The notes under the pieces are model-generated. The model was not told the origin of the DNA, did no database searches, and saw nothing but the letters and a program-made list of their open reading frames with translations. A DNA stretch of 64,000 bases from NCBI GenBank assembly GCA_030377965.1, contig JAUCGE010000009.1, forward strand, positions 1-64,000, given 5' to 3'. The first letter of the stretch is position 1. The number at the start of each line of letters is the position of its first letter. Made by a program: the position numbers and the translations under genes. Below are positions 1,738-38,800 of this stretch, in pieces. This stretch comes from Desulfobacterales bacterium HSG16. GTDB lineage: Bacteria > Desulfobacterota > Desulfobacteria > Desulfobacterales > HSG16.

Positions 1738-1751
1738 TTTTTAATAGATCT

Positions 1752-1811
1752 CAGGTTTTTGATAAATACTCGGTTTTTGGCAGATGCCCGGTTTTTGACA
1801 GATGCCCGGCA
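1752..1811. repeat. 18-bp tandem repeat, about 3.3 copies
   Basis: The 82-bp gap between the PRTase-PELOTA gene and the HAD gene is mostly a direct repeat with an 18-bp period. The GGTTTTTG core recurs at 1754, 1772 and 1790, with a partial GGCATTTT at 1808. The copies nearest 1800 are almost identical and the copy near 1755 has drifted. It sits within the operon, so it is transcribed. Copy number may vary between strains; no function is evident. Confidence 0.8.
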
Positions 1812-1819
1812 TTTTCCGC

Positions 1820-13426: not shown

Positions 13427-13584
13427 GGTCGTGGATGAAATTAATTCCATAAGATTGCGCCGAATTTGGATCTGTTTTACGGCGCAGTATGGGTGGATAC
13501 TTATTGTCTGTACCCATCAATACAACGCAGAAAACAGATTACAGGCAAGCAAGGTTGTGGAAGTTATTTCATCCACAGCCCTTA
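13423..13584. repeat. Two copies of a GTGGATGAAAT palindromic repeat between convergent genes
   Basis: The 142-bp gap between the convergent transglycosylase and cheB genes is bounded by two copies of one repeat. The better copy (13551-13584) reads, on the minus strand, GGGCTGTGGATGAAATAACT followed by TCCACAACC, forming a ten-base stem. The copy at 13423-13452 is degenerate and in opposite orientation. A third copy is at 56037-56072. Both stop codons (TAG at 13424-13426; TGA at 13569-13571) fall inside the repeat. It may act as a two-way terminator, though there is no clear T-tract. Confidence 0.7.
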
Positions 13585-14657
13585 TCCCTGTTCATATATG
13601 AAATGATTGTATCCGCAATATTCGAAAGTGGAACAATTTCATCCACGCAGCCGCTATCTATCGCACTTCTGGGCATTCCCCACACGACGCTGGACGATTC
13701 ATCTTGAACAATAATATGAGCGCCTGCTCTTTTCAGAGATTTGACACCGATTTTACCATCTGCCCCCATTCCGGTAAGTACGATACCAATGACGTTTCTG
13801 CCATAGACTGCTGCTGCGGACCTGAAAAAGATATTTATTGAGGGACGGCAGCCATTTTCCGGTGGCTGCTGGTTCATGATAAGACCAGTTTCCTTGTCGA
13901 ATCTGCGTACCAGCATATGGCTGCCGCCTGGTGCTATATAAACGAATTTCGGATTTATAATTTTTCCGTGTTTACCTTCAACGACTGTGTATAGACATTT
14001 TTTATCCAGACTTCTGGCAAGTGAATCTGTGAATTTTGGCGGCATATGCTGAACTACAAGGATTGGGATATCGATTTTTTCGCATAATGCGGGCAAAATT
14101 TCGCCCAAAGCTCTTGGCCCGCCAGTTGAAGATCCAATGAGAATCGCCTGAATGGATGAGGGACTGTCAGTCTGTGTTGATCGCTGAGGAGTAATTGGAA
14201 CGGAGCAGATTTTCATCGAAGAAGGTTTAGCCTTTTTGCCAGTATATTGACGGAGTTTTGGCAGCAATTGGTTCCGAATGATTTCTATCCCTGCTTCGGA
14301 ATTTTTTGCTTCCGGTTTTGTAATGAAATCGAAGGCTCCTGCTTCCAGAGCCTTTATGGTAACATCTGCTCCATGTTCCGTGAATGAGCTGATCATGATG
14401 ACACCGACAGGAGGAGTATCCGGGGTTGTGCTATTGATTTTCCGTATGGCATTCAACACAGAAAGTCCGTCCATCCCCGGCATTTCGACATCAAGAGTTA
14501 CTATATCTGGACGCTTTCTGCGGATGAATTCCAATGCCTTGGTTCCGTTGAAGACAGATCCGATGATTTCTACATGGTCGATGCCTTCCAGGCTTTTTTC
14601 TAACGCGCTTCTGAAAATTCTGGAATCATCAACGATCAGTACTTTTATTTTTGACAT
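13569..14657 (-). CDS. cheB: Chemotaxis response regulator protein-glutamate methylesterase CheB
   Basis: A 362-residue CheB. The REC domain (about 4-125) has VDDSRIF and the phospho-acceptor in VTLDVEMPGMDG. The methylesterase domain (about 170-355) has the nucleophile Ser in LIGSSTGGPRAL, the His in VQHMPPKFTDSLA and the Asp in GMGADGKIG, so it is complete. It removes methyl groups from, or deamidates, MCP glutamates. It is the last gene of the chemosensory operon. The usual partner CheR is not in the window. Its last codons (KGCG) and TGA are supplied by a repeat copy, so the C-terminus may have been altered by the repeat. Confidence 0.95.
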   Translation of the reverse strand: MSKIKVLIVDDSRIFRSALEKSLEGIDHVEIIGSVFNGTKALEFIRRKRPDIVTLDVEMPGMDGLSVLNAIRKINSTTPDTPPVGVIMISSFTEHGADVTIKALEAGAFDFITKPEAKNSEAGIEIIRNQLLPKLRQYTGKKAKPSSMKICSVPITPQRSTQTDSPSSIQAILIGSSTGGPRALGEILPALCEKIDIPILVVQHMPPKFTDSLARSLDKKCLYTVVEGKHGKIINPKFVYIAPGGSHMLVRRFDKETGLIMNQQPPENGCRPSINIFFRSAAAVYGRNVIGIVLTGMGADGKIGVKSLKRAGAHIIVQDESSSVVWGMPRSAIDSGCVDEIVPLSNIADTIISYMNRDKGCG

Positions 14658-14828: not shown

Positions 14829-14966
14829 TAAGTACCTGTGCAAAAATTCTGTGACATTTTTTCGTAGGGTGGGCAAAAGCGAAGCGTTGCCCACCATTTG
14901 TTTGACCGCTGGGCGCTGTTGTTTCTACCCAGCATGGATGTTAAAAAATTTTTGGTGAGGTACTTA
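14829..14966. mobile_element. 138-bp MITE-like element at the MCP stop codon
   Basis: The ends form imperfect terminal inverted repeats: TAAGTACCT (14829-14837) against AGGTACTTA (14958-14966), extending to 22 matches in 28 positions. The interior holds a second palindrome around 14863-14893 (GGTGGGCAAAAGCGAAGCG followed by TTGCCCACC). There is no reading frame for a transposase. The right-hand TAA is itself the stop codon of the MCP gene. The element sits exactly between the intact MCP and the MCP relic. Target-site duplications are not clear. Confidence 0.6.
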
Positions 14967-17072
14967 TACAGCATCGACTTTGAACCTGTCTGCCATTTCC
15001 TGCAGTTGGGCAGCGACGTTTGCCAGTTCGCCGGACGAAGTTTCAACCTGCTTTATACCAGATGATATATCTGTGACATTATTTGAGGCAATGCCAGCAC
15101 TTTCGGATATGTCATTAACGCCCTTTGCCATTTCAGCGATGGAAGAAGCAATCGTGCGAACACCGTCATTTGCCTGTTGAACGCTTGCGGATATCTCATT
15201 TGATGTAATGGTCTGCTGTTCCACTGATTGAGATATCATATTGGAAGATTTGTCGATTTCACTGATAATGCCAGAAATATTGCCAATAGCCTGGGTGGTT
15301 TCCTTCGTGCTGCTCTGCACTCCTTTTATACGCCTGGCAATATCCTCTGCGGACTGTCCACTCTGATTCGCCAGTTCCTTTATTTCGCTTGCCACGACGG
15401 CAAATCCTTTTCCGGCATTGCCTGCTGAAGCAGCTTCAATGGTGGCGTTTAATGCCAGCAGGTTGGTCTGCTGTGCAATCTGCTTGATCACTTCCGTCAC
15501 TTCCCCGATCTCGTTTGCTGCCTGTCCCAGATCATTGATGGTTTTTGTGGCAGAATTGGACATTTCCATAGCTTTTTGCGAAATATCAGAACCCTGTTTT
15601 GCATTTTTGGCTATATCGCCGATGGATGAACTCATCTCCTCTATGGCCGAGGCAATGGAATTTATGATCGTAGACATCTGTTCTGCCGTGGAGGAAACCC
15701 CCTGGGCGTTGACGCTCATCTGTTCGACTGCTGATGCCACTGTATCAATGCCAATCGATGTTTCTTCAGATCTACTGGCAAGCTGGGTGGAAACAGCGGA
15801 CATTTCTTCTGAAGATCCAGCGAGATTTTCGGCGTTTTCCTTTATTTGAAGCAGCATATCGGCCAGATCTCTCGCAGATTTGTTCATGGCCTCGCCAAGT
15901 TCTCCGATTTCATCCTGAGTGTTAAACGTCATTCTTCCGCTCATGTCTCCTTGAGCTATGGCTTTTGCAAATTTCACTGTCTGTTTTATCTTTTCCGTTA
16001 TCATGCCTTTGACTATTATCCATAGAATGATCAGGGCGATAACAAGACAAGTGATACCCATTCCAATCATTTTCCACATCTGATTAAACGCATGATTCAT
16101 CTGCTGGTTGGCTGCGTCAGTGACTTGTTCCATGGGAATATTGATATTGAAGCTCCAGGGCGTGACAGTGCGTCCGACTTTCAACGGAATGAAAACAGCT
16201 ATCCTGCCCTCGTCCATTTCCGCTATTTTTTCACCTTTTTTAATATATTCCAAGTCTTCCTGCCAGTTTTTATGGATATTACTCATAGGTTTACCAGCAA
16301 GCTCTGGTCTGTCCTTGACAGCAATCAATGTTCCACTATGACTGATCACAGAGCTTTGAGCCATACCATTATATAATTTTATATCGTCAACAATAGCTTG
16401 CAGGCTGTCCAGCCGGATATCGACACACGTAATTCCATAAAAAATATCGTTTTCGATGATTGGTACGACTAAAGATGTCATCAGAACGAGTTTACCCTGC
16501 ACTGGATAGATATAAGGTTCAATGATGCATTCTTTTTTTGTTTTTTTGGGAAGTTGATAATAGTCTCCCGGACCTTCTTTGTCATAATCCTGTGCAGGTT
16601 CGACCATAATTTTTCCAGTCTGATCACGACTCCAATAGGGTACAAACCGGCCGGTTTGATCATGGCCTGCAGCATTGACATATTCATGATCAAGATTGTC
16701 AAACGCTGCTTTTTCCCAGCAGGTAGCAAATCCCAAAAAATCAGGGTTTTTTTCCAGAACATTCTTAAGAATGCTGTTGATTTGTTTGGGGTTTAAAGGT
16801 TCCTTTTCTCCATCTTTTTTAATCACGCTCAATGTTTGAGCCAGGGTTCGAGCAGCGTCAATGGCTACCTCTAATTCAGTTTTGATATGGTTGGCGTATT
16901 CTCCGGCGACTGCCCCTGCGAAATGTTTGGCATCTTTAATGGCTTTGTTTCTGGTTTGCACAGCGTTGATTTTCATTGTTACCGCTGAATATGCGATAAT
17001 GAGACCGCAGGATAATACCATACAGATTCCTGCCCAGAAAGTGATTTTTATTTGAATACTTTTTTGTTTCAT
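14964..17072 (-). CDS. Methyl-accepting chemotaxis protein with dCache sensor domain
   Basis: A 702-residue transducer. A first membrane helix (about 10-30) precedes a periplasmic double-Cache domain (about 35-330; includes [20 protein letters not shown]). A second membrane helix ([20 protein letters not shown]) leads into HAMP (about 360-410) and a long MCP signalling domain to residue 690. The hairpin tip reads [23 protein letters not shown]; the residue after AG is Asn, where most receptors have Glu. dCache domains bind small ligands such as amino acids or organic acids. AGGAG-like GGAGAAAATT precedes the ATG. The stop codon lies in the MITE-like element, and a frameshifted copy of its tail lies beyond. 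It follows cheW by 16 bases. Confidence 0.94.
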
Positions 17073-17674: not shown

Positions 17675-20650
17675 TTACCTATGCAATAATTCTGAAACAT
17701 TGATGAGTAGAGCTTCTCTGTCCAGTTTCACCTGATAGGCATCGAATCCCACATCTTCTGTCCGGTCTCTATCTTCAGCAGAATCGAGTGCAGTCAGGGC
17801 GATTGCAGAAATTTTCGGTGTATTACTTTCATTTCTGACATATTCCATGAACGTCCAGCCGTCCATGACAGGCATATCAATATCTGATATGATTAAGTCG
17901 AATTTTTTTTCACCCATTTTTTCAATTGCCACTTTTCCGTTTTCAACTGCCGTGACTTCATAACCTTCTCCCTCAAGATATCCTGTAAGCAGATTACGAA
18001 AAAAAATCATATCTTCCACAAGAAGCAGTTTTTTATGTTCCTCGGGCGGAGGTGCATTCTTTTTTCTATCATCAAACCAGTCTGGTTCTGCCAGTTCGAT
18101 CAAGCAATATATATCTATAAACAGAGTCATGCGGTTTCTGATAATGGCAGTACCCAGCAAACCCTTTTCCATATAGCTTTTCACATTCAAATCGGTATCT
18201 GCACTGGCAGTATCCACGACTGCGGAAGTAAGAATTCCAAAAGGCCGCCGGATGTGTCTGGGCAGAAGCAGACGCATTTGTTCATGATCGCTGCATGGAG
18301 AAACATTCAGATATTGATCCAGACGAAGAATCAGGGTAGAAATTCCATCAATATTGATAAATTCTCTGGTTCCCACTTTTTCGATTGCAGAAAGCTTTAT
18401 CTCTTCCACCCTTCGAATCATGGGAAGCGGGATGGCAAATTGTTCATGAGGGCCGTTTGTAAACAGAAGGACGGTCTGTTTTTCATCTATGATATTTACG
18501 GTTTCATCCACTTTCCCCTCATGCAGATTGAAGCGGACACCAGCATGCTCTGCCAATCCTTCAACATTGAGTATCAGCGTCACTGATCCGTCTCCCATGA
18601 TAGTAGTTCCAGAATAGATATTCAGTTCTTTGAGCGCCTGATGCATGGGATTTACAACAATTTCCTCAACTCCTATAATGTGATCTACAACAAGGCCGTA
18701 TCGTTTTTTTCCAATTTTGACTACTGCAAAATTGAGCATTTTTACAGGAAAATCATTGCTTTTTATGGCACGTTCTGCTCTTTCTCCATAAACCTTGGCA
18801 ATATCAGATCTGGCTTCTTCCGTAAATGAGACAGCCTGCTTGAGTACCTCGTTTAACCTGACGATTGGAAGAAGCCGATCTCTGAGCCGAAACACTTCCT
18901 GGTTTCCGGCACATTCGATTCGAGTGTACACTTCTTCGTTATACAGGCACAACAATTCTTTTATGTTGATCTGTGGTATAGCGTAACGAAGGCTTGCGAC
19001 TTCTACGATCATGCATGGAATAATGGCAAGGGTCAAAGGAATTCTGAGATAGACCATAGTCCCTTTTCCCGGACAGGATTCGATCTCTATGGAACCTCCG
19101 ATTCTTTCCACGCCGGTTTTGACAACATCCATTCCAACGCCTCTGCCGGATATATCGCTGATATTATCGACAGTTGAGAATCCAGGTAAGAGGATAAGGT
19201 TTATGATATCTTTGTCATTCATTGCTGATACGTCTTCTTCTGTTTTCAACCCCGCATAGATAGCTTTTGATTTTATGACAGCGGTGTCCATCCCTTTTCC
19301 ATCATCATTGATCTGAATATGAATCTGACCTGCTTCATGAAATGCGTGAACATGGATATAGCCGGTTGCCGGTTTTCCGATTTTTTTCCGGATATCCGGT
19401 GCCTCAATACCATGATCACAGGCATTCCTGATCAGATGAGTAAGCGGATCAGTAAGGGCCTCAAGAATTGTCTTGTCCAGTTCAACCTCACTGCCGGAAG
19501 TCTCAATTTCGATCCGCCTGTTAAGTTTCACGGAAAGATCCCGGACGATTCTGGGCAGTTTGGAGAACAGATTTTCGACAGGCTGCATCCGTGTCTCCAT
19601 AACAGTTTCCTGGAGTTCTGTGGTGACCATGTTCAATTGTTGAGATATTTTCTGATAAGTCTGGTCAGATTTTGTCATGGTCAGTAAATTGTTCCTTACA
19701 AGTACCATTTCCCCTGCAATTTTCATCAATTGATCCAGAAGATGCACTCGTATCCGTACAGTATCACTATGACCGCGTGTTTCCGGGACAATCGGTTTCT
19801 GATCTGATAAAGTGTCTTTGATTTCATCATGTGGATCTTTTGATATTTTTTTCAGATAAGAGTCTGATATAGCATTTGTTTTTTCAGGTTTGCTGATTTC
19901 TAAAATATCATTGGAATCAAGGGTGGCCATCTCTTCGATCAAACCGGTTTCAAGATCTGTTGCATAGAGAGCAAAATACATAAGCGGAGTATCTGAAAAA
20001 TCCAGGTCAAAATTCAACGCCCCTGTTTCAATTTTTGTGTCGACAAACATTCCTTTGTTTAACAGGTTCCGTATCAGTGAAAGGGCTTTAATCCCTTTTT
20101 TTTTCTCAATTTCGTGCAGATTAAATTTTAAAAGATAAAGATGAGTATAATCGGAAAGAATATTCTCAAGCTTGAATTCGCTGACTGCAAAATCGATATC
20201 GTTTCCCATAGTATCGGTAAGCACTACTGATGATGCCATTTTTTTACGAGTTTCTACATTGCCGACCGAATTGATAAAACTTCCTATCCTTTTTAATATT
20301 CGGCCAATGTCCATGCTGTTGCTCGTTTCTATATCATCAAGCATGCTTTGTAATATATCATTACCCGTAAGCAGAGCGTCTATAACTTCGGATTCAGGCC
20401 GGATATCGAGTTTTCGCATCATATGGAGCAAGGTCTCCATACTGTGCGTAAGTTCGACTATTCCTGTGTATCCGAGAAACCCGGCTGCTCCTTTGATGGA
20501 ATGGACACCGCGAAAAATTTTTGCGATCAATTCCAGATCAGGATTTACAGATTGAGTCTCCAGCTTTACCAGATCTCGATCTACGCTTTCTACATGTTCT
20601 CTTGCCTCATCCAGAAAATCTTCTTTCAAATCGCTGATTTCATTATTCAT
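17675..20650 (-). CDS. cheA: Hybrid chemotaxis histidine kinase CheA-CheW-CheW-REC
   Basis: A 991-residue CheA-type kinase. Domains in order: Hpt/P1 (about 1-105; phospho-His in GVHSIKGAAGF), a variable region to about 290, dimerisation P3 (RVHLLDQLMKIAGEMVLVRN), CheA-type HATPase (HLIRNACDHGIEAP, NDDGKGMD, ISGRGVGMD), a first CheW-like domain (about 540-690), a second (about 705-855), and a C-terminal REC with the acceptor Asp in LIISDIDMPVMDGW. Duplicate CheW domains and a fused REC are typical of non-flagellar or alternative chemosensory systems. The REC may serve as output or phosphate sink because no free CheY lies nearby. GAGGTGAA precedes the ATG, 17 bases after the upstream gene. Confidence 0.94.
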   Translation of the reverse strand: MNNEISDLKEDFLDEAREHVESVDRDLVKLETQSVNPDLELIAKIFRGVHSIKGAAGFLGYTGIVELTHSMETLLHMMRKLDIRPESEVIDALLTGNDILQSMLDDIETSNSMDIGRILKRIGSFINSVGNVETRKKMASSVVLTDTMGNDIDFAVSEFKLENILSDYTHLYLLKFNLHEIEKKKGIKALSLIRNLLNKGMFVDTKIETGALNFDLDFSDTPLMYFALYATDLETGLIEEMATLDSNDILEISKPEKTNAISDSYLKKISKDPHDEIKDTLSDQKPIVPETRGHSDTVRIRVHLLDQLMKIAGEMVLVRNNLLTMTKSDQTYQKISQQLNMVTTELQETVMETRMQPVENLFSKLPRIVRDLSVKLNRRIEIETSGSEVELDKTILEALTDPLTHLIRNACDHGIEAPDIRKKIGKPATGYIHVHAFHEAGQIHIQINDDGKGMDTAVIKSKAIYAGLKTEEDVSAMNDKDIINLILLPGFSTVDNISDISGRGVGMDVVKTGVERIGGSIEIESCPGKGTMVYLRIPLTLAIIPCMIVEVASLRYAIPQINIKELLCLYNEEVYTRIECAGNQEVFRLRDRLLPIVRLNEVLKQAVSFTEEARSDIAKVYGERAERAIKSNDFPVKMLNFAVVKIGKKRYGLVVDHIIGVEEIVVNPMHQALKELNIYSGTTIMGDGSVTLILNVEGLAEHAGVRFNLHEGKVDETVNIIDEKQTVLLFTNGPHEQFAIPLPMIRRVEEIKLSAIEKVGTREFINIDGISTLILRLDQYLNVSPCSDHEQMRLLLPRHIRRPFGILTSAVVDTASADTDLNVKSYMEKGLLGTAIIRNRMTLFIDIYCLIELAEPDWFDDRKKNAPPPEEHKKLLLVEDMIFFRNLLTGYLEGEGYEVTAVENGKVAIEKMGEKKFDLIISDIDMPVMDGWTFMEYVRNESNTPKISAIALTALDSAEDRDRTEDVGFDAYQVKLDREALLINVSELLHR

Positions 20651-20667: not shown

Positions 20668-22917
20668 TCACTCGATTCTGTATGACTCGTCCATATGTGC
20701 CATTCGGAACAGCTCGGCTATATCCCTGGTTGCATTCATGATTTCAAGTTCGCTACCTGCATCGCTGTCCGACAACATTCTGGCAAGAATAATGAATGCA
20801 CTCAATCCAACCGAGTCGATATCCTCAACCTTTGACAGGTCAAAACGGTATTGAGTGTATCCCTCATCGGTCAGTTGTTTGAGAAGTGAACGAAATTCAT
20901 CTATTTCAGAAGCGACAATATCACCGGACGGAATGATGATAATTCGCTTGTTTTCTTTTCTTGTATCAAAACAAGTCTTCTGGTAAATAACATGATAAAC
21001 GGTGATTCGGTTGCCAGCCGCATTGAACTCGATCTCCTCGCTGAAGGCTTTTATAAACGGATATCCCCTCTTTCTAACTTGATATTTGTTTTCCGGTATG
21101 GACATGTTTAAGGCTTCATAATCAAAGCCATTTCCCTCGTCTTCGACAATTATCTTGAACAGGGAATTTTGCATTTGAAGGATATTGCATACAATCTGTT
21201 TTTCAGGATTGTTTCTATTTCCATGTTCCACAGCATTGATGAGAAGTTCCCGTAATATGAGATTTATGCCTGAAAACGCTTTAAATCCGAGTTTTAAGAG
21301 AAAAACTTTGGTTTCCTGTATTATACAGTTTATAAGTTTCATATCGGATGATATACGAAAATCAATTGTGGCATCACCTCTTCTTACCTGGAAAATATCA
21401 GACAGGTCAGATTCAGCGATCAGATCGGCTTCATCAACTGCTGATATTTTGGTAACATTTACAGTTGATTGCCGCCGCTTGATGATATCTGCCACAATAC
21501 CTGCCGGGTTGATAAATTTCGATTTCTCTTTTTTGACTATCAAACTATTGCTGCACACAAGTCCGGCAAACTGTGTATCCACAAGCTTTGTGAGATCTAC
21601 AATTTTTCCAATTCCCATTTTTTCATGCATATATCGTTGTATTTTATCCAGATCTTCGATGACCGGGAATAAATCATGAGTTCGTATGCCTGTGGGCTGT
21701 GTCAGTATTTTTTTCAAAATCAAGGGATTGAGTCCAAGACTGCCCTGGGGGTCCAGAAAATCTACAGCTATCCGGGCTGCTTCTTCTGGATTTGTATCAA
21801 TATGCTCTCCCGCTTGTGCAAGCAGATCGACAAATTCATAAACCGCATCAGGATTTGCATCAACAAATTCCTGGCGCATGGCCACTACGCAGCATGGATG
21901 ATTTTCCCATAGATCACCCGAATAAAACATCAGTTCGCTGATTCCATCATCAATGGCTTTGGAACCAAAAGGTTCTGCCACTGCAAAACCGCATGAGTTT
22001 AGATTTTTCCGGAGAAATTCCGACATTTTGACGGGAGGTACGACTTCAAAGAATACATCAACTCCCGGCCTGCCTACAGGTCCGAGGGTCAATCCGATTT
22101 CATGTAGAAACATATCGGCTAACATGTGATGAACGGACATGGTATGAGGAAGAAAAAATACTCTTGATTTAAAATATTCATGAAGGGATTGCAGCCTGTC
22201 TTCGGCTATATTCCGCACACAGATACTTCCGTTTTTATGGGCAAGAAGTACAATTTTTAACGGAATACCGATACTGAAAAGATCCATAGCCAATGGCGCG
22301 AGAAGAAACGCTGCATCCGCTTCTTTTTTTTCCAGAGAATCCTGGACAGAATTCCAACTGGACATACAACAGGTGTTGAGTTCAAAATATTTCGGGCTGA
22401 CTTTTTCAGTGTCGATCATATGCTTCAAGACTCCAAGAGCTAAGTGATCGGTCACCTGAATATGAGCGATTGTCATCTGTACTTTTTGAGGAGTATGCTT
22501 TTTTTCAGGCAAAATGTCTGCCTGATTTTTAGGGGAAAAAATCGAATCGATGATTTTTCCTAAATCCGAGGATGTGAACGGTTTTGTAAGAAAATAGTCA
22601 GCACCTTTTTCCATGGCTTTTCTGGCCTGTTCTTTTTCACCCTGAGCTGTTGCCATGATAAAAGGTATTTTATGATGTTTTTTATCTGCACGTACCCTTA
22701 AAAGGAATTCATAACCGCTCATTTCCGGCATGTTCCAATCGCTGATGATCAATTCCACATCATTTTCTTCTTCCAGTTTGCGTATGGCATCCAAACCGTT
22801 ATCTGCAATAATTATGTCATGTATCCCCAGCTCTTTGAGGGCTTCTATTTCCAATTTTCGAGTTAATTCGAAATCTTCGGCCAGAAGAATCTTTGTCACT
22901 TTTTTCTTTTCAGCCAT
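20668..22917 (-). CDS. REC - NasS/NrtA-like binding domain - HATPase - STAS fusion protein
   Basis: A 749-residue four-part protein with no signal peptide or membrane helix. REC is at about 8-130 (LAEDFELTRK; acceptor Asp in LIISDWNMPEMSGYEF). About 150-440 resembles nitrate/bicarbonate binding proteins of the CmpA/NrtA/NasS group (VQMTIAHIQVTDHLALGVLK; SSWNSVQDSLEKKEADAAF; closing KIVDLTKLVDTQFA). About 510-640 is an RsbW-like HATPase with LRELLINAVEHGN and EDEGNGFD. About 655-749 is STAS, with the phosphorylatable Ser near 702 in DIDSVGLSAF. Kinase and its likely substrate are thus in one chain. Inferred role: a cytoplasmic metabolite-sensing switch coupled to the array. The next gene upstream encodes a matching PP2C phosphatase. 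I know of no named family with this order. Confidence 0.85.
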   Translation of the reverse strand: MAEKKKVTKILLAEDFELTRKLEIEALKELGIHDIIIADNGLDAIRKLEEENDVELIISDWNMPEMSGYEFLLRVRADKKHHKIPFIMATAQGEKEQARKAMEKGADYFLTKPFTSSDLGKIIDSIFSPKNQADILPEKKHTPQKVQMTIAHIQVTDHLALGVLKHMIDTEKVSPKYFELNTCCMSSWNSVQDSLEKKEADAAFLLAPLAMDLFSIGIPLKIVLLAHKNGSICVRNIAEDRLQSLHEYFKSRVFFLPHTMSVHHMLADMFLHEIGLTLGPVGRPGVDVFFEVVPPVKMSEFLRKNLNSCGFAVAEPFGSKAIDDGISELMFYSGDLWENHPCCVVAMRQEFVDANPDAVYEFVDLLAQAGEHIDTNPEEAARIAVDFLDPQGSLGLNPLILKKILTQPTGIRTHDLFPVIEDLDKIQRYMHEKMGIGKIVDLTKLVDTQFAGLVCSNSLIVKKEKSKFINPAGIVADIIKRRQSTVNVTKISAVDEADLIAESDLSDIFQVRRGDATIDFRISSDMKLINCIIQETKVFLLKLGFKAFSGINLILRELLINAVEHGNRNNPEKQIVCNILQMQNSLFKIIVEDEGNGFDYEALNMSIPENKYQVRKRGYPFIKAFSEEIEFNAAGNRITVYHVIYQKTCFDTRKENKRIIIIPSGDIVASEIDEFRSLLKQLTDEGYTQYRFDLSKVEDIDSVGLSAFIILARMLSDSDAGSELEIMNATRDIAELFRMAHMDESYRIE

Positions 22918-22956
22918 TTTATTCCTTTCTTATTCCTGTCCAATCTCATGTTGAAT

Positions 22957-24216
22957 TTATGGAATTTCAAATCCTAATAACAGAATATCGTCTTTTGGTT
23001 TACCCCTGCAGAATTTGAGCAGATCATTCCAGACCATGGAAATCGTTTCATCAATGGGCAGATTCCGGTATTTAAAGATCAAGTCGTTCAGCCCTTTTGC
23101 ATACAGTTTTTCGCGTTTTCCTGTTTTTGTGTTGAATCTGGATGTGTTGGGTACGCCGTCCGTATGTACAAACAATCGGTCTCCGGTACTCAAATGTATC
23201 TGTTCGGATATAAAGCTTATATCGGATTGCAGGCCCAGCGGGGTTCCACCGCTTGTAAAAATTTGTTCGGGAAAAGAGTCATTTTTTCTATGAATAACAG
23301 CCCAGGGATGACCGGCTGATAACATTTCACAAGATTTTTCATCAAGACGGATACGGGTAAAAAGCCCTGTAATCATCTGTTTTTCATTCCCGCTTTTTAA
23401 AAGATGTCGATTCAATAATGTAAATAATGTGATTCCATTATCTTCTTTGTAACAGTTTTCATCGAAAAAGGCTTTCAGGAGAATCGTATGATAAGATGAT
23501 CCTATGTCATGACCGGCTACGTCGGCAACAAGAATACTCAAAGTGCTGCCGTTTTCCTTGATATCTATGAAATCACCGCCGAGTTCTGCTGCTGACTGCT
23601 GCCGCCAGCTTAAATCGAGCGGGAACTTATTGTCCTGTTTCAGGTCAATTATATTGTGATAAATATCCATAGCCGAATTGAGCTGACTCTGCATTTTTTT
23701 AAGGTAGGTTTCGTAGCTTTCAAGAATGTGGTCTACTTTGGATTGCCGGTCAGTTTTATCCTGGTTCATGTTCTTTTCATAATTTTGCCTGATTTTTAAA
23801 TGTGCGCGAAGCCTTGCTTCCAGCCTTTCAGGATTAAAAGGTTTTGTCAGAAAATCCACAGCTCCCGTCTCAAAACCTCTGACTTCATCTTTAACTCCGT
23901 CTCTGGCAGTCAGAAAAATTACAGGAATGTTGCAAGTTCGATCATCATTTTTCAACTGTCTGCAAACCTCATATCCGTCCATTCCCGGCATCATTATATC
24001 CAGCAGAATGATATCCGGCCGGTTTTTAGAAAATGAAATTTCAAGTGCCTTAGAACCGTTCGTGGCCGCAACGGGAGTATATTTTCCTTTCAAAAATCCC
24101 GACAGAATCCGGATGTTTTCCGGTTGATCATCCACGATTAAGATTACAGGTTTTGAATCACTTACAGGCGATTCCATTTCTCCTCCCATGCTTGAAATTG
24201 AGGTTTTTCTATCCAT
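22957..24216 (-). CDS. Response-regulator PP2C/SpoIIE-type phosphatase
   Basis: A 419-residue protein. REC is at about 20-140 (ILIVDDQPENIR; acceptor Asp in IILLDIMMPGMDGYEV), followed by a helical linker (about 145-200) and a SpoIIE/RsbU PP2C domain (about 205-418). The metal ligands are visible in AAELGGDFID, VADVAGHDIGS and FVHTDGVPN, so it should be active. RsbU-type enzymes dephosphorylate STAS anti-anti-sigma proteins. The only STAS domain in the region is on the next gene's product, its expected substrate by context. It is preceded by the hybrid kinase gene (18 bases) and followed by the REC-binding-HATPase-STAS gene (39 bases). AAAGGATAAG lies upstream of the ATG. Confidence 0.92.
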   Translation of the reverse strand: MDRKTSISSMGGEMESPVSDSKPVILIVDDQPENIRILSGFLKGKYTPVAATNGSKALEISFSKNRPDIILLDIMMPGMDGYEVCRQLKNDDRTCNIPVIFLTARDGVKDEVRGFETGAVDFLTKPFNPERLEARLRAHLKIRQNYEKNMNQDKTDRQSKVDHILESYETYLKKMQSQLNSAMDIYHNIIDLKQDNKFPLDLSWRQQSAAELGGDFIDIKENGSTLSILVADVAGHDIGSSYHTILLKAFFDENCYKEDNGITLFTLLNRHLLKSGNEKQMITGLFTRIRLDEKSCEMLSAGHPWAVIHRKNDSFPEQIFTSGGTPLGLQSDISFISEQIHLSTGDRLFVHTDGVPNTSRFNTKTGKREKLYAKGLNDLIFKYRNLPIDETISMVWNDLLKFCRGKPKDDILLLGFEIP

Positions 24217-24234
24217 TACATACTTATCCTTTAA

Positions 24235-27200
24235 TCAATCTGATTCAAGCAAAATATTCATGATTCCGGCAATTTTTTCAATCGTTATCAGCGCTTCATC
24301 GAAATCATATGCCCCTATCTGTTCTTCAAGCTTTTTGACTTCTTCCATTGCATCTGTACCATGAAGGTATTCCGGCAAAGATTTTATTATATCTTCAACT
24401 TCTGTTCTGTTTAATTTCACAGCATCATAAAGATCGAGCAAAAGATGCCTTATTTCTTCCTCACTCCGACATTTTTGTTTCACTGATAAAGAATTTTTGT
24501 TTGATACAAGGGCTATAGACTGCTCATACAATTTTGCGGATGTCAGGATTTGGATCAGGGCATGATGGAGGCGATCAAGACAGGATGAAATTCTGGTATG
24601 ATCGGAACCATCATTGTCCGCTGCCATTTTTTTTAACATGGATTCCATCTCCAGGGCCGCGTCGTACAATTCCGTAGCTGATAGATTTCCAGCCACTCCT
24701 TTAAGTGCATGAATTCTATTTTGGGCTTTTTCAATCTTGCCGGTTTTAATCCAATTTTTGACATGCAGGTGGATATCTGAGAAATGTACTAATTTTTTCA
24801 ACAGGTTCAACAGCAATTCAGTATTCCCTCGTGTTCTCTGCAAAGCGGTTGGAATATCAACGCTCGAAAACGTATCAATAAAAAAATGTGTGGGTACTGG
24901 CATCGAGTCGACATTGTGGGAACAAGCAGGAAAATCTTTTCGATTTTTCTTATCCGTTTCACCTCCTCGGCAGATCCATTTACAGAGAATTTTGGCCAAC
25001 TGCCTAGGATCAATAGGTTTTTTAATATAGTCATTCATTCCTGCTTCAAGGCATTTTTTCCTGTCACCCTGCATGGCATGGGCGGTCATGGCAATTATTG
25101 GAATTTTTTGTTGTTTCAGACTGTTCAGATTTTTCTTATCTATATTTGATTCCAGAATTCTGATTTGTTTCGTAGCCTCGTATCCGTTCATTTTCGGCAT
25201 CTGCACATCCATCAGAACTGCGTCATAATCGAATTGAAAGACAGCATCTATTGCCCCAAAACCATCTTCTGCTGTATCAACCTGGATTCCTTCATATTCC
25301 AATAGATGCTGCATCATTTCCCGATTGATTTCATTATCTTCCACAAGAAGTACTTTTGCGGCATACTGAGATCCAATTATGCAGAATTTTTCGTTTCCCA
25401 TCCTGGAAGCTTCGGATATGTCCTTTTTACTTCTTTTTTCAAGCAGTATCGTAAGATAAAAAGCGCTGCCTTTATATTGCTCGCTTTCCAATCGAATATC
25501 TCCGTCCATCATTTCAGCCAGTTGTTTTGATATGGCAAGTCCCAGGCCGGTTCCATGATATCTCCTGGCAGAAGAATCATCCACCTGTGTAAAAGCTGAA
25601 AAAATATCTTTGATATTTTCTTTCGGTATTCCGATCCCAGTGTCTTTTACAACAAAAGTGAGCCTTACAGAGTCTTGTATCTCCTCTAATACACGAACGT
25701 TGATGTCAATCATGCCTGAATGCGTAAATTTCAAAGCATTATTTGTCAAATTCAGCAGTATCTGCTTGATACGAATAGGATCTCCGAAAAGAACGGGCGG
25801 AACATCTGGACTTATTTCAATATTCAATTTTACATTTTTCTGGCTTGCCTGAAGCGTAAACATGTAGGATATTTCATCAAAAATCTCCTTTAATCGAAAT
25901 GCCTGTTGAAAAATATCCAGTTTTCCAGCTTCAATTTTCGAGAAATCCAGGATATCGTCAATCACTCTCAGCAAGGTGTCCGATGCAGATCGTATTCTTT
26001 CGATATAATCTAGCTGTCTTCGCGTCAGATCCGTTCTCATTGTCAGATACGTAAATCCTGAAATTGCATTCATTGGTGTCCGGATTTCATGGCTCATGTT
26101 CGCAAGAAACCTGCTTTTTGCCCGGTTTGCAATATCTGCCCCTTCCTTTGCCTTTTTCAATTCTTCCTTCGCCCGTTTCTGTTCTGTAATATCCACATGA
26201 GTTCCGACAAGGCGGACATATTGTCCGTCAACATCAAGTTTTGCAAATGCTCGTGAAAGAATATGTCGGTATGCGCCGTCTTTGTGGAGCATCTTAAATT
26301 CAATGCTGAACTGATCTGTTCTGCCGGAAAGATAATCTTCCACAAGTGCAAACGTTCTCTTTTTGTCTTCAGAATCGACCAGTCTTTCAAAAGCTGATAA
26401 ATGATTTTCGATTTCATCTTCGTCATAGCCCAGCATCTCTTTCCAACGGGGCGAATAATAAATTTTGTTTGTTTGCAGGTTCCAGTCCCATAGCCCGTCA
26501 TTGGCACCCCGCATAGCGAGTTCAAGCCGTTCCCTGTTTTTTTCCAGGGCTTTTTCCACCCTTCTGCGCTCTTTTATCTCCAGCTTTAAATTCTCGTTGG
26601 CTTTTATCAGTTCAGCGGTTCGTTCTTCCACGCCTTTTTCAAGTTCTTCATGAGCTTTTTTAAGTGCCTCTTCGGCTCGCCTTCGCTCTATAATTTCCAA
26701 TTCCAGATCCGCATTGGCTTTGAGCAGCGAAGTAGTACGTTCCTTTACATGCTGTTCCAATTCATCCCTGGATCGATAAAGGGCATCTTCTGTGCAGCGG
26801 TGTTCGGCAATTTCCAATTGCAGTCGGGCATTTTGTTCTTCCATGCGTTTTTGCAGATATCTTGTACGCAGATGATTTTTCACCCGGCATTGCACTTCTT
26901 CGGTCAGAAAAGGTTTATCAATGAAATCAACCGCACCCAGAGAAAGCGCTTTTATCTTATTGATCGGGTCGTTCATGGCACTGATGAAAATAACGGGGAT
27001 ATCACGGGTATTTTCATTTTCTTTCAGCCATTGACATACTTCATATCCGGACATTTCCGGCATTTTTATGTCGAGAAGAATCAAATCAGGAGGCTGGGAT
27101 TTAACACTTTCCAGAGCACTCTGACCATCAGCGAACCCTATGACATTGTACCCTTCGTTTTCAAGGATTTCGATAAGGATAAGAATATCTGTCATAACGC

Positions 27201-27252
27201 CGTCGACAACCAGAATATTTGCTGTGGACGTATCAAAGTAAAAATGATTCAT
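24235..27252 (-). CDS. Hybrid histidine kinase REC-coiled coil-PAS-HisKA-HATPase-REC-Hpt
   Basis: A 1005-residue cytoplasmic kinase; no membrane segment is seen. The N-terminal REC (about 10-125) has the acceptor Asp in LILLDIKMPEMSG but its acid pocket reads VVDGVM, with one Asp replaced by Gly. Three coiled-coil repeats of the kind ERTxxLxKANxxLxLEI run to about 260, then PAS with PAC (NDGLWDWNLQT). HisKA has FLANMSHEIRTPMNA, and HATPase has NLTNNALKFT and HGTGLGLAISKQL. A second REC has VLLVEDNEINRE and MDVQMPKMNGYEA. The C-terminal Hpt His is in IHALKGVAGNLS. I chose 27252 because GGAGGGACA precedes that ATG. It is first in the chemosensory operon and probably phosphorylates the REC domains encoded downstream (inference). 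Confidence 0.92.
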   Translation of the reverse strand: MNHFYFDTSTANILVVDGVMTDILILIEILENEGYNVIGFADGQSALESVKSQPPDLILLDIKMPEMSGYEVCQWLKENENTRDIPVIFISAMNDPINKIKALSLGAVDFIDKPFLTEEVQCRVKNHLRTRYLQKRMEEQNARLQLEIAEHRCTEDALYRSRDELEQHVKERTTSLLKANADLELEIIERRRAEEALKKAHEELEKGVEERTAELIKANENLKLEIKERRRVEKALEKNRERLELAMRGANDGLWDWNLQTNKIYYSPRWKEMLGYDEDEIENHLSAFERLVDSEDKKRTFALVEDYLSGRTDQFSIEFKMLHKDGAYRHILSRAFAKLDVDGQYVRLVGTHVDITEQKRAKEELKKAKEGADIANRAKSRFLANMSHEIRTPMNAISGFTYLTMRTDLTRRQLDYIERIRSASDTLLRVIDDILDFSKIEAGKLDIFQQAFRLKEIFDEISYMFTLQASQKNVKLNIEISPDVPPVLFGDPIRIKQILLNLTNNALKFTHSGMIDINVRVLEEIQDSVRLTFVVKDTGIGIPKENIKDIFSAFTQVDDSSARRYHGTGLGLAISKQLAEMMDGDIRLESEQYKGSAFYLTILLEKRSKKDISEASRMGNEKFCIIGSQYAAKVLLVEDNEINREMMQHLLEYEGIQVDTAEDGFGAIDAVFQFDYDAVLMDVQMPKMNGYEATKQIRILESNIDKKNLNSLKQQKIPIIAMTAHAMQGDRKKCLEAGMNDYIKKPIDPRQLAKILCKWICRGGETDKKNRKDFPACSHNVDSMPVPTHFFIDTFSSVDIPTALQRTRGNTELLLNLLKKLVHFSDIHLHVKNWIKTGKIEKAQNRIHALKGVAGNLSATELYDAALEMESMLKKMAADNDGSDHTRISSCLDRLHHALIQILTSAKLYEQSIALVSNKNSLSVKQKCRSEEEIRHLLLDLYDAVKLNRTEVEDIIKSLPEYLHGTDAMEEVKKLEEQIGAYDFDEALITIEKIAGIMNILLESD

Positions 27253-27606
27253 TGTCCCTCCGTTTTTTAATTTTAGTTTCTGTCGATGAATCACTTTGCT
27301 GGATATCTCCATCAAAATTCATGTTGAGATTGAATCCAAAAGGCAAATTTAATATTTTAATTCAATATCCCGGGCAGCCACAATTTCTTATATCTATTGT
27401 TTACCTCAGAGTTTTTTTGCTTATCCAGAAACACTTCTGGATAAGCTGCATTGAATATCGTATTATATCTGCAAAGTGATTATTTTGCAAATACGGGTTC
27501 AGGTCTTTGATTATATAGAAGATTTTTTGCATGGTTTTCCATCGACTTTTTTACGGATTTACCGCCTGATGTTTTCATCGGGCGTTTCAGACAGGAGAGC
27601 AGTACG
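27253..27606. promoter_or_regulatory. Divergent intergenic region with a 12-bp-stem palindrome
   Basis: This 354-bp gap separates the minus-strand chemosensory operon from the plus-strand radical SAM gene. At 27419-27446 there is a perfect inverted repeat, GCTTATCCAGAA, four bases, TTCTGGATAAGC. No T-tract follows on either strand, so it looks more like an operator or attenuator than a terminator. A weak plus-strand promoter (TTGCAA at 27485, GATTAT at 27509, 18 apart) may serve the radical SAM gene. I found no clear promoter for the chemosensory operon. Confidence 0.45.
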
Positions 27607-35756: not shown

Positions 35757-35811
35757 AAAATCCATGCGATGCATTTGATGATTAACTCTCCACCATAAGG
35801 ATGTGACAAGC

Positions 35812-38800
35812 ATGAAAACCAGATTTTTCACTTCTATTGCCGCCCCTATCCTGTCAATTGCCCTTATCTTCATTTTGATCTCTCAGACTGTTTTTGCCCA
35901 ATCTGATCAAATGCAAATTCCTGAGACTCTGACGGAACAAAAAGTTTATATCCCCTATGATAAACTTGAAACAGTACTGGACAATCAGGAAAAAGGAGTA
36001 TTCATTCCGTATTCCGATTTCTTGAAATTATGGGAAAAAGCCACGAGGAAAAAGCCTGAAAAAAAGATCCCTCCTCCGCCTGTTGATGCAGCCATCATTC
36101 ATTCCCAATATACTGGAACAGTGGAAAAAGATGTGATTCGGTTTCAGGGGCAATTGAAAATATCGGCTATCAAAGAAGAATGGGCAAAACTTCTTCTTGA
36201 TTTTACCGATATCGCAATTCGAAAGATCACTATAGACGGTAAACCTCCATTGCTTAATCCTGTCAAGAAAGGGCTTGAACTCATTATTCCGGAAAAAGGG
36301 GAATACCTTGTAAATATCGATTTTGCTGTAAAAATCGAATCTCTTCCTGATAAATTTATTTCATCATTTAAACTTCCGTCAGCACCTCTTATCAAAATGG
36401 ATCTTAGATTTTCGGACAAAGACCTTGATGTGCGAATCGAGCCTATGCTTTCTGAAAAAACAGGATCTTCCGAGGATCATTCTCTTATATCCGCGTTTTT
36501 ACCGCCCCAGGGCAAAGTACAAGTTAGCTGGTTGGCAAAATCTGAGAAAAAAACCGCTCAAGCCCTTATTTTTGCAAAGACTTCATCCATGCTCAAAATT
36601 GAGGAGTCAGTATATTCCATTGATACTGACATCCAGTTTTCTGTAATCCAGGCAAAAACAGGCAATTTCAATGTTCAACTGCCAGAGGGTTTGAGCATTG
36701 TAAATGTCAAAGGGGAAAATATACGACAATGGGATACAGATGATAACGGAATGCTTCTTGTTACTCTGTTTAAAAAAATCGAAGGCAATTATAAACTGAG
36801 CCTTAAAACGGAATTATATCGAGATCCGGCCCAAAAGAAGTTTGCCTATCCCGCCATTAAAATTCCTGATGCAAAACGGGAAGAAGGCATCATTGCAGTC
36901 AATGCCGCTCCGTCTTTGAAGGTCAAGATGGAAGGAACGTCAAAAGTCACTCAGGTTGATTCGGACGATAATCAATTGTTTGCCTTTCAATATTTCAGAC
37001 ATCCTTTTGAACTTAAATTTTCGATATCTGAAATCAAGCCCGAGATCAGGGCATATATCAAAACTCGTGTCCATATAGGAGAACATATCATTGCTGTCAA
37101 CAGCGAAATTCTGTATAATATCAAAGGCGCAGGAGTGTTTTTTCTTGATCTGATCATACCTGAAACTTTTTCGGTTTCCGATGTGGGCAATCAAAAAACG
37201 GTGGAAAGCTATTCGATTTCAAAAACTGAGGGTAAACGTGTCATGCATGTGGTTTTAAAAGCAAGGGCGTTTGGCAAGTTTGCCCTTCCTGTGCATATGG
37301 AAAAACCCAGGTCATCCGATGATCTGTCTTTTCAGCTACCCCAGATTTCCTGTATGAATATTCAAAGAGAAGAAGGAATAATTGCCCTGTCTTTACGCAA
37401 AAACCTGAAAATGTCCACCCGTGATACAAAAGGTCTTGTTCCTGTCAATCCTCGATCATTGCAAAATGCGGGGTTTTCGCCGGAAAGCAGATTAAGCGAA
37501 CTTGTGGCAGGATACAGGTTTACGGGAAACGAATATGGAGCCACACTCGATATTGAAAAAAGGAAAACCCGTGTCACAGCAGCAGTTGAGCGGGGTGTCA
37601 TAATTGAGGAAACCGGGATTACGACCACTGATATTATAAGATACAATATTTTGTTTGCTCCAATACGAACCTTGAAAATCGAGGTTCCGGCAGACCTTGG
37701 AAAAGATGCACGGATTTTCGGTAAAAATATCAAGGAAAAACGATTTAATATAGAAAAAAAGGATTCGGGTAAAAAAGATATCGGAATATGGGAGATTGAT
37801 CTTCATTCTCCTGTAATGGACAATTATTCCTTTTCCATAAAAATGGAAAAACGTTTTGATGAGATACAGGCGACACAGACCAGGGAACTGGATATGCCGA
37901 TGATCAGAGTTCTGGATGTATTTTACGAGTCCGGCCATATCTCAATATCAAAAAGTCCAAATCTTCAGGTGGAACCGGAACAGCTCTTAAATTTAAAACC
38001 TGTCGATACAAAAGAATTGCCTGCTGCTATGAAGCGGGTGTCGAGCGCACTTGCTTTCAAGTATTTGAGCCATCCTTATTCCATCAAATTCAGAGCGACA
38101 CGCCATGATTATGAAAAAGTGTTAAATGGCGTTGTGACACATGCACACTTTGATATCGTGGCATCTAAAGAAGGAATTGCAAAGACAGAATCTATTTTCA
38201 GGATAAAACATTCCAACCGGCAGAGTGTGGAAATAAAAATGCCGGAAAATCATACAAGAACATATGCCGTATTCATCTCCGGGAAAAAAGCGAGTATTTC
38301 CAAAGGATCGGACAAATTTACAAAAATATTGATGTTTCCAAAAAATATCAAGCCGGGAAAAGAATTCACAGTCAGGATGATTTACGAGTCCGAGCTTAAA
38401 AAAGATCTGGGCAAAGCAGGTCTTTTCCGAGTCGAGGCTGCTGAAATAAAGGATATTCCCATACTTAAAATATCCTGGCGGCTATATCTGCCTCGAGGAT
38501 TTTCATATCTTCATATGGACGGAAGTGTCCATTCTGACAGAGCATGGTTTACCCTCTTTGATGATATAAATACCGGTATCATGTCGAGTAATGTCTATGC
38601 CCGAAAATCGGTGCAGACCAATTATAATAAAATTCCGGCTCAAAATGACGAAGCAGGACTTGCTGGGTTGGATGTGGAGCTTGTAAGAGAAGGCAGATTA
38701 TATTATTTTTCCAAGCTCGACAAAGATGCATGGCTTAATATTCTATACGTGAAAAGAAGCTTGTTATTCAAAATAGGCGTTGTATTTTTCGCTGTTTTTA

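What the first reader, a model, noticed from the sequence alone, without database searches (positions are those of the whole stretch)
20668..22917. Four-part fusion: REC, NasS/NrtA-like binding domain, HATPase, STAS
A solute-binding domain without a signal peptide sits between a receiver and an anti-sigma-type kinase plus its own STAS substrate in one chain. NasS is a known cytoplasmic sensor of this binding-protein group, so the domain could sense an internal anion or metabolite and gate the kinase. Having kinase and STAS in cis is unusual and would make a self-contained switch.
Basis: partly seen in the sequence, partly recalled or inferred. Interest (0 to 1): 0.8.

Follow-up and report, generated by a model that had tools for sequence, protein, structure and literature searches.

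The report
Cytosolic binding-protein sensor fused to partner switch
A real bacterial protein joins a CheY-like phosphorylation domain, an uptake-type ligand-binding domain kept inside the cell, and a kinase together with its usual target domain; it belongs to a widespread, apparently undescribed family of internal chemical sensors that mostly plug into chemotaxis-type signalling, so it may let cells steer behaviour by what has already been taken up.

Summary
Window 20668-22917, minus strand, encodes 749 aa: REC, NMT1_2 binding domain, HATPase_c_2, STAS (Pfam). AlphaFold2 plus Foldseek confirm a type-II binding-protein fold (3un6, NrtA, CmpC regulatory domain, CmpA) and SpoIIAB/SpoIIAA folds. 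REC phosphorylation residues are intact; E557/N561 and S702 align with SpoIIAB E46/N50 and RsbV S56.

Two corrections. First, this is not a lone oddity. The REC-NMT core recurs in several phyla: REC-NMT-CheW (53 proteins in my set), REC-NMT alone (25, often in ABC-importer operons) and REC-NMT-HATPase-STAS (5). The last form always neighbours CheA and/or MCP genes, and a REC-PP2C phosphatase gene in 4 of 5. Kinase+STAS in cis also occurs without the sensor, and SipA (Actinoplanes) is a published precedent. Second, the pocket is not NasS-like: NrtA's nitrate lysine K269 is replaced by a Cys of a near-invariant His-Pro-Cys-Cys motif shared with adjacent Tat-exported importer binding proteins.

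Best model: a cytosolic ligand sensor gating an HsbR/HsbA-type partner switch attached to a chemosensory array. Ligand, kinase activity and output are unproven. New variant of a known kind; the REC-SBP-CheW family looks undescribed.

The parts
20668..22917 (-). four-domain protein P0001, 749 aa: REC - NMT1_2 (type-II solute-binding) - HATPase_c_2 - STAS
   Evidence: ORF; Pfam; AF2 model pLDDT 88.5
22540..22896 (-). CheY-like receiver, residues 8-126; D15, D60 (phospho-acceptor), T90, K112 present
   Evidence: Pfam; invariant in 49 of 49 REC-bearing rows; CheY structures matched
21553..22485 (-). cytosolic type-II solute-binding domain, residues 145-455
   Evidence: Pfam NMT1_2; PDB profile search; Foldseek
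21889..21894 (-). Cys342-Cys343 (WENHPCC motif) at the position of NrtA Lys269 / CmpA Glu270
   Evidence: alignments; C342 in 49/49 and C343 in 48/49 REC-NMT rows; NrtA K269 and H196 from PMC8786288
20983..21390 (-). HATPase_c_2 (SpoIIAB/RsbW-type kinase domain), residues 510-645; E557, N561 (N box), D593-x-G-x-G (G1); G2 box partly degenerate (RGYPFI)
   Evidence: Pfam; alignment with SpoIIAB; Foldseek; alignment A7
20671..20967 (-). STAS domain, residues 651-749
   Evidence: Pfam; RsbV and TM1442 alignment; Foldseek
20812..20814 (-). Ser702 (DIDS-VG), aligned with RsbV Ser56; D-S invariant in all 9 HATPase-STAS sequences
22957..24216 (-). REC-SpoIIE (PP2C) phosphatase, 419 aa, immediately upstream; presumed phosphatase of the STAS domain
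   Evidence: Pfam; conserved upstream gene in L009, L015, L019 and next to NMT-less HATPase-STAS genes
24235..27315 (-). hybrid histidine kinase (REC, PAS, HisKA, HATPase, REC, Hpt), first gene of the run
   Evidence: Pfam
17675..20650 (-). CheA-REC (Hpt, dimerisation, HATPase, CheW domains, REC), 17 nt downstream of P0001
   Evidence: Pfam; same order in L013, L015, L019, and CheA without REC in L009
17089..17580 (-). CheW
   Evidence: Pfam
14964..17072 (-). methyl-accepting chemotaxis protein with PDC sensor
   Evidence: Pfam
13569..14657 (-). CheB (REC + methylesterase), end of the cluster
   Evidence: Pfam

Best explanation
The protein is the sensor-and-switch subunit of a chemosensory partner-switching pathway. 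Shown: it carries an intact CheY-type receiver, a cytosolic type-II binding domain, an RsbW/SpoIIAB-type kinase domain and an RsbV/SpoIIAA-type STAS domain with its phospho-serine, and it is encoded between a REC-regulated PP2C phosphatase and CheA/CheW/MCP/CheB. Inferred: CheA, fed by the MCP, phosphorylates the receivers of the phosphatase and of this protein. A small ligand in the cytosol closes the two-lobed binding domain; together these inputs set whether the HATPase phosphorylates Ser702 of the STAS domain (in cis or within a dimer). The neighbouring PP2C reverses it. The STAS phosphorylation state then chooses a protein partner, as HsbA does in Pseudomonas. The binding domain thus reports what is already inside the cell, as the CmpC regulatory domain does for nitrate, and the MCP reports what is outside. 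In most relatives the same REC-binding-domain core ends in a CheW domain and would feed the array directly. The ligand is not nitrate; a ligand imported by the Tat-type SBP/ABC system that neighbours some relatives, possibly bound with a metal through the Cys-Cys/His pocket, is most likely.
For: Domains and folds. REC residues invariant 49/49, CC motif 49/49 and 48/49. S702 = RsbV S56; E557/N561 = SpoIIAB E46/N50. Operon order PP2C - P0001 type - CheA-REC - CheW - MCP in the window, L015 and L019, and similar in L009 and L013. The same locus without NMT in L134-L136: REC-PP2C, 250-aa HATPase-STAS, CheA-REC, CheW, MCP, so the partner switch exists without the added sensor. REC-NMT-CheW is the majority form. 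REC-NMT genes next to NMT1-type importers: SBP gene near 16 of 25 'alone' forms; those Tat-exported SBPs share the SW / HxNGS / S-x-H / NHPCC signature. Such an SBP is found in only 1 of 390 sampled genomes of the phylum at E<=1e-50. Precedents: CmpC regulatory domain senses cytosolic nitrate and gates its ATPases (PMC13249358); HsbR/HsbA (PMC5085249); HATPase+STAS in one chain in SipA (PMC10733313).
Against: No biochemistry exists. The paralogue L002 has Gln at the catalytic Glu position and a separate intact HATPase gene beside it, so kinase activity of the fused domain is not essential everywhere. The G2 box of P0001 is degenerate (GYPF). No anti-sigma or sigma target is in the operon, and FlgM was not found in the genome (MAG 80% complete). 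The window operon has no importer, so the ligand link comes from relatives. AF2 pTM 0.66 leaves the domain arrangement uncertain.
Confidence: 0.5

Rival explanations
1. The binding domain is a NasS-like sensor of nitrate, nitrite or bicarbonate.
For: Fold matches NrtA, CmpA and the CmpC/NrtC regulatory domains; His263 and Trp188 keep positions aligned with conserved NrtA/CmpA pocket regions; NasS is cytosolic (PMC3795266).
Against: NrtA K269, one of the two basic residues balancing nitrate (PMC8786288), is Cys343 here, and CmpA's Glu270 is absent too; CC is near-invariant in the family; the closest solved relative is 3un6. NasS keeps all nitrate ligands and pairs with an ANTAR protein (PMC3795266).
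Confidence: 0.08
2. The binding domain is a metal or thiol-redox sensor: vicinal Cys342-Cys343 with His227/His258/His263 bind a soft metal or react with sulfide or oxidants, and this gates the kinase.
For: Conserved Cys-Cys plus several conserved His; 3un6, crystallised 'with Zin[c]' by its title, shares the CC, P-H-x-x-S-x-H and equivalent His positions (alignment); neighbouring importer SBPs carry Tat signals, often used by proteins folded with cofactors.
Against: Zn ligands of 3un6 were not inspected (no coordinates available here); the same residues could line an organic-ligand pocket; Zn may be a crystallisation artefact.
Confidence: 0.25
3. HATPase and STAS in this chain are mainly a binding scaffold: the HATPase holds the STAS domain (as in SipA) and the real kinase and output lie elsewhere.
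For: E557 replaced by Gln in L002, which has a separate HATPase gene; degenerate G2 box; in SipA the two domains bind each other constitutively (PMC10733313).
Against: E557, N561, G1 box and Ser702 are intact in the window copy and in L013, L015, L019 and L134-L135; a PP2C phosphatase gene is adjacent in 4 of 5 loci, expected only if STAS is phosphorylated.
Confidence: 0.25
4. The NMT domain regulates an importer by docking to it (like the CmpC regulatory domain) rather than sensing for signalling.
For: REC-NMT alone forms are often encoded inside importer operons.
Against: P0001 and the other HATPase-STAS forms have no importer genes nearby (0 of 5) and the usual fusion partner is CheW.
Confidence: 0.07

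Closest known systems
HptB-HsbR-HsbA partner switch (Pseudomonas aeruginosa)
   Same: REC-controlled PP2C phosphatase, HATPase serine kinase and STAS protein, linked to chemotaxis/flagellar genes; STAS phosphorylation chooses the partner (PMC5085249)
   Different: HsbR has REC-PP2C-HATPase in one chain and a separate STAS HsbA; here PP2C is separate, HATPase and STAS are joined, and a binding domain with its own REC is added. The same genome also holds an HsbR-like REC-PP2C-HATPase plus STAS pair on contig C260.
SipA (Actinoplanes missouriensis)
   Same: RsbW-like and STAS domains in one chain that bind each other (PMC10733313)
   Different: Reverse order (STAS first), no REC, no binding domain, no chemosensory operon.
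CmpC / NrtC C-terminal regulatory domain
   Same: Cytosolic NrtA-type binding domain fused in cis to an ATP-using protein and gating it by ligand (PMC13249358)
   Different: Gates ABC transporter NBDs, not a GHKL serine kinase; lacks the CC motif at the K269 position.
NasS (NasS-NasT)
   Same: Signal-less NrtA-type cytosolic sensor (PMC3795266)
   Different: Separate protein that releases an ANTAR regulator; keeps nitrate residues that are replaced here.
CheV (CheW-REC coupling protein)
   Same: REC and CheW in one chain at the array (own knowledge)
   Different: The family here is REC-SBP-CheW, with a ligand-binding domain between and reversed order.

Membership tests
Type-II solute-binding protein / NMT1_2 (PF13379) | two-lobed fold and Pfam model over the cut-off | tested here: met
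   93.4 bits vs cut-off 24.7; Foldseek to 3un6, 2g29, 2i48
NasS | cytosolic NrtA-type domain without signal peptide | tested here: met
   domain starts at residue ~145 after a receiver
NasS | nitrate-coordinating residues of NrtA (K269, H196) kept | tested here: not met
   K269 position is Cys343, H196 position is His263 by homologous motifs
NasS | ANTAR partner NasT encoded nearby | tested here: not met
   none among the neighbouring genes annotated with Pfam
CheY-like receiver | D15, D60, T90, K112 (acidic pocket, phospho-Asp, Thr, Lys) | tested here: met
RsbW/SpoIIAB serine kinase | N-box Glu and Asn, G1 box | tested here: met
   E557, N561, D593-x-G-x-G aligned with SpoIIAB
RsbW/SpoIIAB serine kinase | intact G2 box | tested here: inconclusive
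   first Gly kept, second replaced (RGYPFI); G-x-G kept in L002 and L134
RsbW/SpoIIAB serine kinase | phosphorylates a STAS serine | not testable with these tools
   needs biochemistry
RsbV/SpoIIAA antagonist | phospho-acceptor Ser after Asp | tested here: met
   D701-S702 aligned with RsbV S56; invariant in 9 sequences
HsbR/HsbA partner switch | REC-PP2C-HATPase in one chain with a separate STAS | tested here: not met
   REC-PP2C separate; HATPase-STAS joined
HsbR/HsbA partner switch | all four functions (REC, PP2C, HATPase, STAS) together in one locus | tested here: met
   window 20668-24216
SipA-type cis anti-sigma/antagonist | RsbW-like and STAS domains in one chain | tested here: met
   order differs from SipA
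SipA-type cis anti-sigma/antagonist | partner sigma factor with STAS domain encoded nearby | tested here: not met
   no sigma factor among the annotated neighbours

The most novel reading that the evidence does not exclude
REC-NMT proteins are an undescribed, multi-phylum class of cytosolic chemosensory subunits. An ABC-importer binding domain is re-used inside the cell, phospho-controlled by a receiver, and plugged into interchangeable outputs (CheW coupling domain, HATPase-STAS partner switch, or none beside its cognate importer), so that the internal level of an imported ligand, probably bound with the help of a Cys-Cys/His site, sets the state of a chemosensory array or of a cis partner switch.
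Probability: 0.4. Interest if true: 0.8.

Novelty: new variant of a known kind. Interest (0 to 1): 0.6.

Why it matters
Chemosensory arrays are usually described as reading the periplasm through MCPs, with binding proteins helping from outside. A soluble binding-protein domain inside the cell, welded to CheW or to a partner switch and to its own receiver, would give a direct route from nutrient uptake to array or switch output. The modular set (CheW, HATPase-STAS, standalone) makes ligand gating testable by swapping one core between outputs. The conserved Cys-Cys pocket and the neighbouring Tat-type importers give a concrete way to find the ligand.

Tried and rejected
My first worry, that the STAS phospho-serine was lost (D-S-V-G instead of D-S-S-G), was wrong: the acceptor is the Ser directly after Asp, by alignment with RsbV S56. 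Nitrate/bicarbonate sensing was rejected on the K269/E270 position. A single-genome or assembly artefact was rejected by recurrence. THI5/HMP synthase was considered because Foldseek lists Thi5 at ~12% identity; not pursued, since the nearest hits are uptake SBPs and regulatory domains. Looking for the ligand by wider importer context failed: only 1 of 390 sampled genomes had the Tat-type SBP at E<=1e-50. A HEAT-REC neighbour of the NMT-less loci as common target was not supported in the own genome (empty answer of limited weight). FlgM as target: not found. Literature searches with the REC/NMT1/CheW/STAS terms found no description of the family, but the library holds open-licence papers only. 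Promoter and terminator scans gave no more promoter-like sites than shuffles (34 vs 33.9).

Full report
WHAT IS THERE. The interval 20668-22917 is one open reading frame of 749 codons on the minus strand. Pfam finds, all above the curated cut-offs, a receiver (residues 10-123), an NMT1_2 solute-binding domain (143-384), a HATPase_c_2 domain (546-640) and a STAS domain (655-746). The AlphaFold2 model is confident in all four domains (mean pLDDT 88.5, pTM 0.66; weak spots only around residues 140-142 and 489-503, the linkers). Foldseek places the middle domain with 3un6, NrtA (2g29), the NrtC and CmpC cytosolic regulatory domains and CmpA. The C-terminal 250 residues match SpoIIAB and SpoIIAA, the two partners of one crystal complex, and RsbV.

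KEY RESIDUES. Receiver D15, D60, T90 and K112 are invariant in the 49 REC-bearing rows of alignment A5 (the two remaining rows are HATPase-STAS-only proteins and are misaligned in that region). S702 aligns with Ser56 of RsbV. E557 and N561 align with E46 and N50 of SpoIIAB (their catalytic roles are from general knowledge). D-S is invariant in nine HATPase-STAS sequences. The G2 box is partly degenerate (RGYPFI). In the paralogue L002 the Glu is Gln, and a separate 146-aa HATPase with the Glu is encoded just upstream.

THE POCKET IS NOT NITRATE-LIKE. The profile of the four own NMT domains matches 3un6 best (2.7e-22), then the CmpC regulatory domain (1e-8) and NrtA (1e-7). The family motif W-E-N-H-P-C-C aligns with H-P-E-E of CmpA and H-P-G-K of the CmpC domain. 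By position this is CmpA Glu270 / NrtA Lys269, the residue that balances the nitrate charge (PMC8786288); the numbering match is inferred from the alignment, not read off a structure. C342 is present in 49 of 49 and C343 in 48 of 49 REC-NMT rows. The same CC occurs in 3un6, whose PDB title says 'with Zin[c]', and in the Tat-signal importer SBPs next to some relatives. Metal or soft-ligand binding is a suggestion only.

OPERON. Transcribed together on the minus strand: hybrid histidine kinase (27315-24235), REC-SpoIIE phosphatase (24216-22957), P0001 (22917-20668), CheA-REC (20650-17675), CheW (17580-17089), MCP (17072-14964), with CheB (14657-13569) after a 306-nt gap. The paralogue locus L009 has REC-PP2C, HATPase, REC-NMT-HATPase-STAS, CheA, MCP. 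L015 and L019 have REC-PP2C, REC-NMT-HATPase-STAS, CheA-REC, CheW, a periplasmic NMT1-type binding protein, MCP. L013 has the fusion, CheA-REC and CheW.

WHERE IT CAME FROM. A scan of 84,980 species genomes with the NMT profile returned 79 loci, mostly Desulfobacteraceae and relatives, also Ignavibacteriota, Chloroflexota, KSB1, Spirochaetota, Nitrospirota and Latescibacterota. Home-made HMMs gave, with the own genome, 53 REC-NMT-CheW, 25 REC-NMT, 5 REC-NMT-HATPase-STAS and one REC-NMT with a PP2C-like tail. In a sample of the own phylum 21 of 395 genomes carry the core (E<=1e-60); outside the own genome the frame lengths fit CheW forms. In the NMT tree the HATPase-STAS forms lie inside the family and need two label changes, with one origin not excluded. 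Separately, other genomes of the phylum have the same PP2C/CheA/CheW locus with a HATPase-STAS protein of 250 aa and no sensor (L134-L136), with HATPase and STAS as two genes (L138, L140), or even REC-PP2C-HATPase-STAS in one chain (L141). The simplest reading, an inference, is that a REC-NMT core from the CheW family was joined to an existing HATPase-STAS gene of a chemosensory partner-switch locus.

LINK TO IMPORTERS. NMT-type SBP genes without REC lie in the loci of 16 of 25 REC-NMT-alone proteins and 5 of 53 CheW forms; an ABC ATPase plus permease were found near 7 and 3 of them (contig ends limit these counts). The Tat-type SBP was found at E<=1e-50 in only 1 of 390 sampled phylum genomes, so its frequent presence beside REC-NMT genes is unlikely to be chance, though the loci are not independent (many from Desulfotignum and Desulfobacula). 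The own genome has eight NMT1_2 domains, four of them in REC fusions.

MECHANISM. Shown: parts, folds, residues, gene order. Inferred from precedent: a cytosolic NrtA-type domain can gate an ATP-using partner on ligand binding (CmpC, PMC13249358). REC-PP2C, HATPase and STAS form a phosphorylation-dependent partner switch (HsbR/HsbA, PMC5085249). A RsbW-like and a STAS domain in one chain bind each other (SipA, PMC10733313). Hence the proposal that CheA phosphorylation and cytosolic ligand together set phosphorylation of S702, read out by an unknown partner. Rough step confidences: folds 0.95, membership of the operon 0.95, ligand binding 0.75, S702 phosphorylation by this HATPase 0.6, ligand gating 0.5, strictly intramolecular transfer 0.35.

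NOVELTY. Each principle has a precedent, so this is a new variant of a known kind. The combination, and the broader REC-SBP-CheW family, were not found in the literature held here, which covers open-licence papers only. The genome is a fragmented 80%-complete MAG (408 contigs), so absences such as FlgM carry little weight.

Noticed in passing
window 35803-39204 (+) and 39201-46820 (+): Two adjacent large exported, membrane-anchored proteins (1133 and 2539 aa) with no Pfam or PADLOC match; they are distant homologues of each other, and the larger contains two copies of the smaller one's core (BLASTP 1e-39 and 4e-23).
   Followed up: partly
window 57162-59870 (-): SNF2-type helicase resembling DpdE/ZorD defence models in PADLOC (2e-67); could equally be an ordinary SNF2 protein.
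   Followed up: no
L141:6417-8330: REC-PP2C-HATPase-STAS in one 637-aa chain, an entire partner switch including the phosphatase, followed by an Hpt-STAS protein.
   Followed up: partly
L134:6746-8383, L135:3702-5339, L140:12533-14167: A HEAT-repeat protein with a C-terminal receiver (544-545 aa) lies beside the sensor-less PP2C/HATPase-STAS/CheA locus in two families; possible target or scaffold, not found in the own genome.
   Followed up: partly
L064:5101-5748 and 14 similar loci: Acidic protein of unknown family, typically about 20 nt downstream of standalone REC-NMT genes, in 15 loci; no Pfam match.
   Followed up: no
L025:1-3589: Tandem REC-NMT proteins with divergent PP2C-like tails that my HMM hits but Pfam does not.
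   Followed up: no
L091:3812-4774 and relatives: Small NMT1_2 proteins (~300-350 aa) apparently without signal peptide encoded in the same importer operons as REC-NMT; at least L091's lacks the CC motif.
   Followed up: partly
own genome C183 (L002:1038-1478 and 1492-3744): The paralogous fusion has Gln at the catalytic Glu position while a separate intact HATPase gene lies just upstream, suggesting division of labour.
   Followed up: partly
own genome C260 (L155): A canonical HsbR-like REC-PP2C-HATPase (598-aa frame) with a STAS gene next to it: the organism also has the standard arrangement.
   Followed up: partly
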